From contig CAIIXF020000008.1 in NCBI GenBank assembly GCA_903813345.2, forward strand, positions 18,460,822 to 18,524,821: a stretch of 64,000 nt of DNA, written 5' to 3'. This stretch comes from Owenia fusiformis. Taxonomy: Eukaryota; Annelida; Polychaeta; Sabellida; Oweniidae. The number at the start of each line of letters is the position of its first letter. Positions within the stretch are counted from its first letter, which is position 1. The position numbers and the translations under genes were made by a program. The notes below the pieces were generated by a model that ran no database searches, had not been told where the DNA came from, and worked only from the letters and a program-made list of their open reading frames with translations. Below are positions 15,001 to 30,000 of the stretch, in pieces.

Positions 15001-18000
15001 TCCCGAGGCCAATATAATATATCTGCCCGAGGGCCGTAGGTCCCGAGGGTAGATATATTATATTGGCCAAGGGATAATCCCAATATCCTGAACCGACTAT
15101 AGGATGATCTGTTTATCCCATACCAATCACATTGTTCAATTGGCCAAAGTTCAGAAACTTTGCAACCAACCGTGGAATTATTTTAAAATATTCATGTCCA
15201 GTTTGTATTCTTGTCCGTGGCCGGATTTTCCTGTTCAAATCTTTGATTATTAACGGGGCATACTGCTCTTTCCCCTCTTTAAAGCATCAAACAGATCGCG
15301 ATTGTCTGCGTTTTTCTCCATTGTCGTTTACAGTATGCGGGCGTTACAAAAAAGAACCAATACGGGAACAGCGATTATGACGTAGCGGGCAGATATACTA
15401 TATCTGCCCGCTCGGAGCGGGACGTAAAGCTATATCTGCCCGCTGATGAAAATATAAGTTTTTACAAACCGGCTTTATGTACCTGTAACAGGTCCAAGTA
15501 TGGGATAAATGTAATTATGTGTTTACATGTTTCATCTATTTAAATTAACAGATCAATTACATCATGTACTTTACTTAGTACTTAGTGTTAATGTGATCCA
15601 TTAAAACATTAAAACTAGATTCATATTAATGGAAAATTAATTTAACTCAAACGCAACTAAGTGTTAATGTGATCCATTAAAACATTAAAACTAGATTCAT
15701 ATTAATGGAAAATTAATTTAACTCAAACGCAACTAAGTGTTCAGACCAGCAACAAGCAACTAAGTGTTTGTAAATACACTTTAACTGGTATGAGGATCTT
15801 TCAATAAATAACTTCATAATATTAACTTAGTATTAATACACATATAGTGGCTTCAATCCAAAGATATCTCCTCGATTCCGCGATATACCATGGTACATGG
15901 AAACAAAAGGGTTTGTACCAGTATTTATTGAACAGCTCTAGTACACACAATTACACAACCTACTGGACAGATTCATCGCAGCAATTTTTCATGAATAATC
16001 AACAATCTTTGAAGCTCAATCATTCATGCGAAGGATATGGAAAGTATTAACACTAAAATGACTGACAGACAACAACATATGAATAACACAGAAAAAGATA
16101 CAAAAAAATTAAAGAGTAAGAATAAGACAAAGAAAGAACTGGCTGAAGATTTTGCATCCAATACATCTGCTCATGGATTTGCACATTTAGTAACCTCAAA
16201 ATATGGGGTTTTACATGTGCTTTGGGTCATATGTATCATAGCATCGGGAACAGGAATGCTGTATGGAATATTTTCAAGTTTTGTCATTTATTTAAACTTT
16301 CCTACCAATGAAATTGTATCAAAGTACACCACAAAACAAGACTTTCCGGCTGTAACACTGTGCAATGTAAGCCCTGTGTCTGCCTACAAAGCAAAATTAA
16401 AAAACAGAGTGAATTTACAAAGTTTTATAGAGTATGCTCAGTTTCTAATGAAGTATGATACATTAAAAACCATTCCAGGTTTTGAAGAATTCGAGGAAAG
16501 ATTCAAAAGTTCGGAAAGTATCATGACAAATGTGAACTTTGGATATTGGTCTCTACAAAGTCATAATTGGACTGATATTATCCTTAGTTGCAAAATTAAC
16601 TCTAAACCATGTCCTCGTGATAATGACTTCTTTAAGCACATTATGAATCCTTCATTTGGTATATGTGTCACTATAAATGGGAACCAATCTGCCGAAAAAA
16701 TCAAAATTTCAACATCAGGGCCGACACGTGGTCTTAGTATGTTAGTTTTCTTGGACACTTATCGAGAAGGAGTAGATAATGTTATGTATGACACAGAATC
16801 TGTGATACAGGGGGGTTCTGGTTTATATGTCCAGGTTCACCCCCCTGAGATTCAGCCTGACCCCGTTACTAAAGGAGTGCAGATAATGCCTGGGCAGTCT
16901 ACAAGTATAAGGATCAAGACACATGTGAACAAATATCTAACATATCCCCATGGTAACTGTACCAAACCTTTCTTTATAGATGACATAGGATATGCCCATT
17001 CTGAGACATTGTGCATGGGGATTTGCAAACAGGCACTAACTCGAGAGAAATGTGGCTGCACATCATTGGGAGAGCCCCATGACTCTAAACCATATACATT
17101 AGGACTAAAAATGACAGGAAATCTTAGCTATTGTGGTAGGTTTGATATAGAAAATGCACTGTCTCCTCATCCTAATATCACAGAATTGGATCAACTGTTC
17201 GAAACACTGAGATGCCAGCAAAATATAAATTTAAATTTCTACTCGGAAAATGACAAGAAATCGTGTGCTTGTTTCCCACCCTGTATGGACACTACATATG
17301 AAATCACAACATCTGCAAGTGCCTGGCCAGAAGAAATGTACATGAAAGCTATTTACGATCACTACATAAACAATCGTCCTGATCGCGATGACCTCACTGC
17401 CTACAACTCAATGAAACACTTAAACATCTCAAGTGAAGTTTGGAAACGTCACATGAAAAAGAACATCCTGCGGCTTAACATCTACTTCAAGGATTTAGAG
17501 ATCATATTAACAGAACAAGACGAGAGTTTCACATTTACAGAGATGCTGTCATCAATTGGTGGTTTCTTTGGATTCTATATGGGGATATCAGTCCTTACAG
17601 CTGGGCGGCCAAACCAAAATATGACGTCACGATTATCACTACGCGCCGGTGATTAAAAAATCACGGCATATGTCCAGAATCCCCACCTCCCGAATAGATT
17701 TTCTAATCCTGCAAAAACTACTGAATATTTACACTTTATACTTGGCAGAGACATAAAGTATAGTTTCTTTTTACGATTTAAATAGGTTTCGATCGCGCGA
17801 CTTCTATATAAGTAGGGTAATTGCAACTTTCATTGCGAGAATTTTGAAGACCCCTTGAAACAATCGAATAAAAACCACTAGTTCGGTTCTAGTTCGGCAG
17901 TTTGAACTGTTGTTTTCAACTTGAACATGTATTTCACGGTGTAATTTTATAAGTTATGACGCGAGTGGTCTATGTCCCTTCATATAAGTGTGTCTGGGTC

Positions 18001-27000: not shown

Positions 27001-30000
27001 TCTACGTATTTAGATCATATGCATACGTTGAAATCAAGAATTAGTTGCTAAAAGGCTAAAAATACTGAAAACTTCGAGTCGAAAGACGACCCTCTTCAAA
27101 ACCCAGGGCTTCACCATTTTGTGTAATTTTGACACGACAAGATGACTGGACCGTAATTGATACAAGTCTCCTGACAAAAGTATTTATCCAGATATTTTTA
27201 TATTTACACATCATATGTATTTTAGACTACATTTTATTTTGCAATAGATTTTTAACCACAGATCTCTAAGAAAAAAATTTGCCCAAAACATTCTGAACTA
27301 ATGTTCCCTCAGATTTTTTTTTGTCATCTTGCTGATTTTCTGATCACATATTTTTTTCGACGTGAAAAAATCAATTCCCAACAAAAACTTAATGCGGGGA
27401 TTGGGGACTACACGTCAATTTTATCATCTATTGGTTATTTTGTATCGGCTAACTACGGATTTCATCCGAGATTGAGTGTTTACAACTGCAGGGGACCATG
27501 TCAAAATCGATCCCTGAGAATTAACATTTTTTCTGAAAATCAATTACTGCTGACTTAATGGCTGATAACTCAAGAAATATATAAGAATGGGCAATAAAAC
27601 ATTCAAATCACGTCCGCGAGTAAAGTGGGGTGCCTTTTCTACTAAAATCACATAAATAACTAATCTCAGAAAAAAATGCCCAAAACATGTATACGACCCC
27701 AATTTTCCAAATTATCGAAACCCAGTTTCAAAACTTTTCTCTTTGAGGTCTTCTTTCTCACCCACCATACCTTATTTAGCTTGTTATTTGTGAAATATAG
27801 TTACATCCCGATATCTCCAAACGTTTCCCTAAATATCAGCCAAAACCATTACGATTATCAATATTTAATATCAATTTATGCACAGGTGTCATTTCACATG
27901 ATTTTTCGAGGCGGGACTATATTCTGTAGAAAAGCACGATTTTCGCGTAGTTTTCACGTTAATGCCGAATCACCGCGACAATTGATTTCTGGGTTTGGCT
28001 GCCCAGCTGTTACACTTTTCGAGATAGGCTTATTCTTATCTGCAATTGTGAAAAAGATGTGCTGCAGCAAAAATAACAAAATGACAGAAAAGGTACATCC
28101 ATGTGCTTAAGGACTCAACAATCCTGTAAATATTCACTGCTTAGGGTTACTTCGGTCCAAAGCCTTCTCTATATTCCGGCTTTGAGGAGGAAGATTGAGC
28201 TGCCTTAGTATTATAAATATTGTAAATCATTGTGTCACACGCACAGTAAATATGGCATAATAATATGAAATATACCTTTATGTATAGATTTGAAGAACAT
28301 CAGCTCACATCCCCATCTGAATCTATTGTTATATTTGATTTCTTTAAGCGAGAATAATTTCAAATGTTATTCACGTCCAGAACCGGAAGCCATTTTTAGC
28401 TACAGCGAGAAAATTTCACCATGTGTCAAACTCCGAAATGAAATTTTGAAATATCTAAATCCAGACAAGCAACGCTTCATCCTAAATATGATTAATATTC
28501 TTAAAAATATTTATAAAATTTATTAAAAATGAGTTCTAGGTGCGTGTGGGTGCGTGTAGCACAGTACATACAAAATCAATGAAGTTTCGTCTAGCTGTAA
28601 GCTAGAGACTCTAGTAAGCTTAGGGAATGCATTCACACTTGATAATAGAGGGTAAACTAGAACTCGTAATTGATTTCATATCTATGTCATAAATATTATG
28701 TATATGTTCTACTGCACTCTTTTGTATATAAGTGTGATTTAAAATATTCTCTATAAATTCTAATTTAACTCACTTTATTTATCTATTTTTGATGATAAAA
28801 TCGTGTAAATACACCAAAACATAAAAATCTTAACTGAGTTGTTTTGTTGAGTTCCAATAGTTTTAATTATCCTTTCATGTTGGTCAGTATAGTGAGTTAA
28901 GAAAATCAGATTTCCTTGTAGTTATAGAAATGGAAACATAAAATACGCAGTGATAAATATCACACTTTTTATATCATGAAATGGCCACTAGTTATTAACC
29001 AAATATGCCAAAAACCTGATAAGACCTTGACACTTGTCTGCCCTCAAATGATTTTGGTGGCACCCACCCTAACACACCCACAAATGCAAATACAGACACA
29101 TTCTCATACAGACACATTCTCATACAGACACATTCTCATTACCACTTGATGACTTCAACATAGAACTTTGAAAATATTACAAGGATGAGACAAACTCCCA
29201 TAATTATTATGATGGATGTGAAAAATCCACTACTTAAAATACATCACATTGATAAAGGTCATTTATTCACAGAACCTGTAGAGTACACATATTTTAAGAA
29301 CAATACCTCTAATGAGTCTGATGGATGAATGGGTCAGGGTTACACAAAAAATGCCACCCACTAATTTTGGAATAACTTTCTCAATGATTAAGGAATCTTC
29401 ATTATTTTTCATGTAAAGATGAGTGTTCAATGGAGAAAAGATTGGTATGCTTGCATTTCATCAATGACTTGAAAATTAAGAGAAATCTCATTTTCAGTGC
29501 ATGTCTCTGACACAAAATCACTCAAAAATGTAAATGAGAAAATCTGTGTTTCCTAAAATTTACCCAATAAACGAGTCATTTGACAAAATGATTTAGGAAA
29601 ATTGGTAGATGGGATATATTATTGAAAATATATGAGTAAACTAGTGAAAGCAATCCAGAAATGACTCAATTAATAGTTAAGACAGAAATCACAGATTTCA
29701 GAAAACTGGCCGGAAATTGTGATAACTCTATATCCCAAAGTTGTTGATACTATCCAAGTACAAACATTTTAAAATCTCTCCATTAAACACTCTATTTACA
29801 CAAGATAAATCACAAAGACTCCTCAATTATTGAGAAAATTATTCCAAAATAAGTGTCTGGCACTTTTTTTGTCATCCTATATACTTATTTGAAAAGAGAC
29901 CCTTGTGAAATTGTATCATAAAATTTGATGTAATAACCAAAATGAAGCAAAATATATTGTGCTAGCATAAGAATATATGGAAAACGCTTCAATTAAAATC

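What the first reader, a model, noticed from the sequence alone, without database searches (positions are those of the whole stretch)
17598..28009. A 10.4-kb transposon has cut a DEG/ENaC gene inside the pore helix
Channel A stops 18 residues after entering the element and its helix-2 end resumes 10.4 kb away, with a TTA target duplication and 17/18-bp matching inverted ends. The intact paralogue gives the empty site, so the boundaries are exact. Superfamily is uncertain: TTA targets suggest PIF/Harbinger, but I see no transposase.
Basis: seen in the sequence. Interest (0 to 1): 0.7.

Follow-up and report, generated by a model that had tools for sequence, protein, structure and literature searches.

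The report
Transposon interrupting a duplicated ion-channel gene
In an unidentified animal genome, a 10.4-kb piece of mobile DNA has landed in one of two neighbouring copies of an ion-channel gene and cut it inside the part that forms the pore; this is an ordinary kind of gene damage, although the exact family of the mobile DNA is not known.

Summary
Bases 17598-28009 (10,412 bp) are an insertion in a single-exon DEG/ENaC gene (channel A), flanked by TTA, with 17 of 18 terminal bases matching in inverted orientation. The intact neighbour, channel B, holds the empty site with one TTA at 37439-37441. A and B belong to a tandem duplication of a GPCR-plus-channel unit. Pfam finds no transposase in six frames of the insert; a control with the same method finds both known genes. 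Best reading: one cut-and-paste insertion of a large non-autonomous DNA transposon. The PIF/Harbinger lead is weak: TTA fits, but the ends read CAG...CTG, whereas PIF/Harbinger ends usually begin with A or G. CA...TG ends, a 3-bp duplication and large size fit the CACTA/EnSpm (CMC) group at least as well. No host genome is held, so other copies could not be sought there. The cut falls just after the GIS filter motif, so A is probably a pseudogene. Ordinary biology, low interest.

The parts
17598..28009 (.). 10,412-bp inserted element
   Evidence: TSD, inverted ends and empty site in paralogue
17595..17597 (.). left target-site duplication TTA
28010..28012 (.). right target-site duplication TTA
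17598..17615 (+). left 18-bp terminal inverted repeat CAGCTGGGCGGCCAAACC
   Evidence: 17/18 match to right end
27992..28009 (-). right 18-bp terminal inverted repeat CAGCTGGGCAGCCAAACC (reverse strand)
16037..17656 (+). channel A truncated ORF, 539 residues: 521 as in an uninterrupted gene (the last codon is completed by two element bases and still gives T) then 18 element-coded residues
   Evidence: (Pfam ASC E 8.5e-71, profile 1-449 of 455)
28012..28110 (+). orphan 3' end of channel A (rest of helix 2 and tail), still an open frame
35884..37521 (+). intact paralogue channel B; empty site TTA at 37439-37441
   Evidence: (ASC E 1.3e-71)
8491..17597 (+). copy A of the tandem duplication (GPCR 8858-9847 plus channel A), continuing after the element to about 28858
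   Evidence: colinear chain
30292..38097 (+). copy B of the tandem duplication (GPCR 30614-31642 plus channel B)
23254..23470 (-). TTAA-type MITE nested in the element, with relatives at 7689-8070, 31950-32325, 51962-52105 and 54309-54572
20910..21446 (.). nested short element with near-identical inverted ends (G)TACAGGGTGTCCTGAAAGTATGGGA, mariner-like by ends only (recalled)
22242..22526 (.). nested interspersed repeat, relatives at 55390-55647 and 44816-44956
18828..19197 (.). nested interspersed repeat, relative at 57631-57816
25423..25887 (.). nested palindromic repeat

Best explanation
A large DNA transposon that codes for no recognisable transposase was moved by a transposase made elsewhere. 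It was pasted once into channel A after the tandem duplication that produced A and B, cutting the target with a 3-bp stagger that was filled in as TTA. It interrupts the second transmembrane helix directly after GISVLT, that is after the GxS selectivity-filter motif (recalled name), so the lower pore helix and the cytoplasmic tail are lost. Channel A is then most likely a pseudogene, or at most yields a truncated subunit. Shown: boundaries, TSD, inverted ends, empty site, frame consequences, absence of Pfam transposase domains. Inferred: mobilisation in trans, cut-and-paste mechanism, loss of function. Superfamily unresolved; my ranking is CACTA/EnSpm-like (CMC) about 0.45, PIF/Harbinger-like about 0.3, others with 3-bp duplications (Zator and so on) about 0.25.
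For: TTA duplication, 17/18 inverted ends and precise empty site. 0 of 400,000 random pairs reach 16/18. No transposase domain in six frames at E up to 1, the only listing being DUF2177 at E 0.14, taken as noise; the control frames recover ASC at 1.1e-69 and 7tm_1 at 1.7e-29. Outside the inverted repeat, bases 23-260 of the two ends share 7 exact words of 8 or more bases against a mean of 2.5 in 3,000 random pairs, 73 of 3,000 reaching 7; with 7-base words the excess is weaker, 327 of 3,000 reaching the observed 14 (similar, 1 and 16 of 150). This is a weak hint of subterminal transposase-binding motifs. Other transposons entered the same pair of duplicates after duplication: a 1.1-kb mariner-like element only in A (10458-11532) and a TTAA MITE only in B (31950-32325).
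Against: No second copy of the ends anywhere in the window at up to 4 mismatches (the one other listing, at 48765, has 5), and none could be sought in the host genome, so 'a family of transposons' rests on one copy. No transposase was found. The part of A before the insertion shows no decay: no stop, dN/dS with B 0.39, and match scores to FaNaC structures of 179.8 against 184.3 bits for one and 140.5 against 137.1 for the other, A first. That may mean a recent insertion, continued constraint on a truncated product, or gene conversion from B.
Confidence: 0.87

Rival explanations
1. It is specifically a PIF/Harbinger (PHIS) element, as the first reader suspected (a finer version of the best explanation, not an alternative to it).
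For: 3-bp TTA duplication fits TWA, and short inverted ends under 60 bp fit (PMC4482050, passages).
Against: End base C where A or G is usual; 10.4 kb against a mean of about 4.1 kb for candidate autonomous elements; no DDE or Myb/SANT domain in Pfam.
Confidence: 0.3
2. It is a CACTA/EnSpm-like (CMC) element without transposase (likewise a finer version of the best explanation).
For: Ends CAG...CTG fit CA...TG, and a 3-bp duplication lies in the 2-5 bp range (PMC12730594, passages); large size (recalled as common in this group); weak sign of shared subterminal words.
Against: EnSpm ends are CAC...GTG in that paper, here CAG...CTG; a random 3-mer would match the Harbinger target TWA with probability of only about 0.07 in DNA of this composition (own estimate); no transposase.
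Confidence: 0.45
3. The insert is spliced out as an intron, so channel A still makes a lengthened protein.
For: A GT at 17649 (CCG|GTGATT) and the AG in the right inverted repeat (TTTGGCTGCCCAG|CTG, ending at 28006) are in phase and would join the halves with 19 extra residues and no stop.
Against: The donor lacks G at +5 (consensus recalled); the insert would put [19 protein letters not shown] in the pore helix; the same scan listed 11 phase-compatible pairs, so some are expected by chance; no RNA data.
Confidence: 0.04
4. Assembly artefact that joined unrelated DNA into channel A.
For: No read data; the host genome is not held.
Against: A misjoin would not create TTA duplications, 17/18 inverted ends and a perfect empty site in the paralogue at once.
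Confidence: 0.02

Closest known systems
CACTA/EnSpm-Mirage-Chapaev (CMC/CMCT) DNA transposons
   Same: 5'-CA...TG-3' ends and a 2-5 bp duplication (PMC12730594, passages); large non-autonomous members are known (recalled)
   Different: Third base G, not C as in EnSpm; no transposase found; membership not established
PIF/Harbinger (PHIS) DNA transposons
   Same: TWA (TTA) duplication; inverted ends under 60 bp (PMC4482050, passages)
   Different: First end base C, not A or G; much longer; no transposase or Myb/SANT domain found
Zator DNA transposons
   Same: 3-bp duplication (PMC10045372, passages)
   Different: No transposase found; end sequences not compared
FMRFamide-gated sodium channels (FaNaC; PDB 7yvb, 8on7), for the interrupted gene
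   Same: Nearest solved relatives of B (E 3.3e-53 and 6.6e-39); the GISVLT motif aligned in helix 2
   Different: Channel A lost everything after GISVLT; ligand of A or B unknown

Membership tests
TIR (class II, cut-and-paste) DNA transposon | terminal inverted repeats | tested here: met
   17/18 ends
TIR (class II, cut-and-paste) DNA transposon | target-site duplication of fixed length with an empty site | tested here: met
   TTA and paralogous empty site; one copy only, so fixed length is untested
TIR (class II, cut-and-paste) DNA transposon | repeated copies in the genome | not testable with these tools
   No second copy in the window; no host genome held; 0 matches in genome contigs; 6 viral contigs matches are not flanked by TWA and share a near-identical context
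PIF/Harbinger | TWA duplication | tested here: met
   TTA (criterion)
PIF/Harbinger | first end base usually A or G | tested here: not met
   C at both ends (criterion); a usual, not an absolute, feature
PIF/Harbinger | DDE transposase plus Myb/SANT protein (autonomous members) | tested here: not met
   Six-frame Pfam; a non-autonomous member would lack them
CACTA/EnSpm (CMC) | CA...TG ends and a 2-5 bp duplication | tested here: met
   CAG...CTG and TTA (criterion)
CACTA/EnSpm (CMC) | CAC...GTG ends of EnSpm proper | tested here: not met
   CAG...CTG (criterion)
CACTA/EnSpm (CMC) | CMC transposase with C(2)C and H(3-4)H motifs | tested here: not met
   No Pfam transposase in six frames; the motifs were not sought on their own; a non-autonomous member would lack it
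Introner (intron-creating transposon) | insert is spliced out | not testable with these tools
   In-phase GT-AG pairs exist; no RNA data

The most novel reading that the evidence does not exclude
The 10.4-kb element is an intron in the making. Its right inverted repeat holds a splice-acceptor-like CCCAG that is in phase with a donor 51 bases inside the left end, so some channel A transcripts could carry an in-frame 19-residue insert in the pore helix, giving a modified or dominant-negative subunit that still assembles with channel B.
Probability: 0.03. Interest if true: 0.5.

Novelty: new member of a known kind. Interest (0 to 1): 0.17.

Why it matters
It is a clean case of a large non-autonomous DNA transposon breaking one of two tandem FaNaC-like channel genes, with exact borders from the paralogue. 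It could serve to define one transposon family in its host. It does not change any general view of transposons or of DEG/ENaC channels.

Tried and rejected
Host genome: not held, so the decisive search for other copies was impossible. End pattern in viral contigs: 6 contigs, all with GGCAC directly before the match, no TWA, and near-identical surrounding letters; read as one conserved stretch of viral DNA matching by chance. Genome contigs, one pattern: 0. Channel B in viral contigs: one stretch matched a pattern, none confirmed as a relative. A 17-base piece of the left end in the paper library: 0 papers. Rfam at gathering thresholds and ARAGORN: nothing in the window. Pfam in four further frames outside the element (1-14997 one forward frame; 40001-54999 three forward frames) gave only the sulfotransferase; the rest of the window was not searched in six frames.

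Did the insertion stop gene conversion between A and B? The 105 bp after the element differ at 15 positions, against 98 of 2,558 in six mostly non-coding stretches upstream. The excess is significant against the last 1,850, 500, 300 and 200 bp before the element (Fisher p 8.6e-5, 0.006, 0.012, 0.036) but not against the last 100 bp (8 of 100, p 0.19), and the first 35 bp after the element differ at only 2. So I do not claim a sharp break; the tail may simply be less constrained. The 25 codons after the element differ at 7 residues, against 43 of 519 aligned residues before it (Fisher p 0.005; one search had used 44, the count of non-synonymous nucleotide changes), but only 2 of the 15 helix residues differ.

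Dating by internal tandem copies: 10/131, 7/149 and 0/99 differences bracket the A-B divergence of 98/2,558; one pair is more diverged, one is similar, one is identical. They hint that part of the interior predates the landing but prove nothing.

A first dS script stopped with an error on the 3' piece because of a one-base frame slip; the residue count was redone without a dS for that piece. A first empty-site string search used a wrong base and found nothing; the alignment replaced it. In one search the join took two TSD bases too many, visible as TT; the conclusion is unaffected.

Structure prediction was not run: it would add nothing to a gene whose fold is clear from sequence.

Full report
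What was checked. The left border reads GTCC-TTA-CAGCTGGGCGGCCAAACC (element from 17598) and the right border GGTTTGGCTGCCCAGCTG-TTA-CACTTTTCGAG (element to 28009). The two ends match at 17 of 18 bases in inverted orientation. Among 400,000 random 18-base pairs 5-15 kb apart in the same window the best was 15/18. An exhaustive count found 427 inverted 18-mer pairs of 17/18 or better with a span of at least 200 bp, 14 of them (this one included) with equal 3-bp flanks. Ends plus a 3-bp repeat alone are therefore weak evidence in this repeat-rich window. The decisive evidence is the empty site.

The empty site. Channel B (35884-37521) is a close paralogue of channel A: 95.0% over 1,944 aligned positions (15656-17599) before the element, and again 88.1% over 109 after it. 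B reads GGTCC-TTA-CACTTTTAGAG, with one TTA at 37439-37441 exactly where A carries TTA-element-TTA. The empty-site reading keeps the frame: CTT ACA CTT TTC GAG in A, CTT ACA CTT TTA GAG in B. The flanks share up to five bases (TTACA) because the element itself begins with CA. Only a 3-bp TTA leaves two ends of the same sequence.

Setting. A and B are parts of a tandem duplication of a unit with a rhodopsin-type GPCR and a DEG/ENaC channel: 8491-28858 against 30292-38097, in ten colinear blocks. After the duplication, A also received a 1.1-kb element with ACAGGGTGGTCC ends (10458-11532), and B received a 376-bp element flanked by TTAA-type ends (31950-32325). The nearest solved relatives of the channel are FMRFamide-gated sodium channels (7yvb E 3.3e-53, 8on7 E 6.6e-39, against 2.6e-26 for the next entry, ASIC5). 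From recalled knowledge that such channels are known from molluscs and annelids, this points to a spiralian host, but the organism was not identified, and no genome is held for it.

Inside the element. Its G+C (0.334) is like that of the window (0.342). No Pfam family is credible in any of the six frames with X at each stop (only listing DUF2177, E 0.14). The same method on 30001-40410 and 30002-40411 finds ASC (1.1e-69) and 7tm_1 (1.7e-29), so an uninterrupted transposase with a Pfam model would have been seen; short, intron-split or decayed exons might be missed. The longest stop-to-stop frame inside is 115 residues, and it runs into the right border. The interior holds repeats that also occur elsewhere in the window: 23254-23470 (TTAA-type MITE), 22242-22526 and 18828-19197; as well as a short element with inverted ends at 20910-21446 and a palindrome at 25423-25887. 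Bases 23-260 of the two ends share more 8-base words than most random pairs (7 against a mean of 2.5; 73 of 3,000 pairs reach 7), but the excess is weaker with 7-base words (14 against a mean of 9.1; 327 of 3,000 reach 14). This is weak evidence for subterminal motifs.

What it does. Channel A keeps its extracellular domain and the start of helix 2 up to GISVLT, which aligns with GISVLT/GISLIT in the FaNaC chains. It then runs 18 residues into the element and stops at 17656. Loss of the lower pore helix should abolish conduction (inference). The reading frame before the insert is intact, and A-B divergence there shows constraint (dN 0.036, dS 0.094, ratio 0.39 over 519 codons), though the first 130 codons alone give a ratio above 1 on only two synonymous changes. 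The GPCR pair has dS 0.048. Because that ratio sums both lineages, it does not show that A is still under selection. A scores about as well as B against FaNaC chains, so A has not visibly decayed. This fits an insertion that is young compared with the duplication, or sequence exchange with B; I could not tell these apart.

Superfamily. Passages of PMC4482050 give for PIF/Harbinger: TWA duplications, first end base usually A or G, inverted ends mostly under 60 bp, mean candidate autonomous length of about 4.1 kb. Passages of PMC12730594 give for the CACTA/EnSpm-Mirage-Chapaev-Transib group: CA...TG ends in most cases and 2-5 bp duplications, EnSpm with CAC...GTG and 3 bp. Passages of PMC10045372 give 3 bp for Zator. 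The element has CAG...CTG, TTA and 10.4 kb. So TTA favours PIF/Harbinger, while end letters and size favour the CMC side. With one copy and no transposase the assignment must stay open.

Splicing. One GT (17649) and the AG inside the right inverted repeat (ending at 28006) are in phase and would give an in-frame insert of 19 residues. Ten other phase-compatible pairs appear in the same listing, so this is no more than a possibility. Introners with TSDs and TIRs are known, with median lengths of 30-654 nucleotides per family (PMC9860276, passages), far shorter than this element.

Verdict. A well-defined, ordinary transposon insertion that breaks one of two tandem channel genes. It is new only as an individual element of a known kind.

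Noticed in passing
31950-32325, 7689-8070, 23254-23470, 51962-52105, 54309-54572: MITE family with ends AGGCAGAATCAGA / AGAGAGAATCAGA at TTAA-like targets (Kolobok or piggyBac type by target only; both are TTAA-specific in PMC9587614, passages); five copies or pieces in the window, the one at 31950 absent from the paralogous site in A.
   Followed up: partly
10458-11532: 1,075-bp element with long inverted arms and ACAGGGTGGTCCAAAAAAA ends next to TAT, present in copy A only; mariner-like by ends (recalled).
   Followed up: partly
28013-28117 against 37442-37546: Divergence just after the element is 15/105, against 98/2,558 in mostly non-coding stretches upstream; not a sharp break at the insertion.
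   Followed up: partly
8858-9847 and 30614-31642: Duplicated single-exon GPCRs next to the channels, nearest solved relatives bombesin, cholecystokinin and galanin receptors (searched with the B copy only); a peptide-receptor-like GPCR beside an FaNaC-like channel in one duplicated unit.
   Followed up: partly
38265-41625: Large tandem-like duplicated block, segments of about 0.6-0.9 kb at 87-93% identity, downstream of channel B.
   Followed up: no
47013-47918: ORF with a sulfotransferase domain (Pfam Sulfotransfer_1 E 8.1e-09).
   Followed up: no
29365-29849: 485-bp repeat with 17/18 inverted ends TTTTGGAATAA... flanked by TAA on both sides, possibly another MITE with a 3-bp duplication.
   Followed up: no
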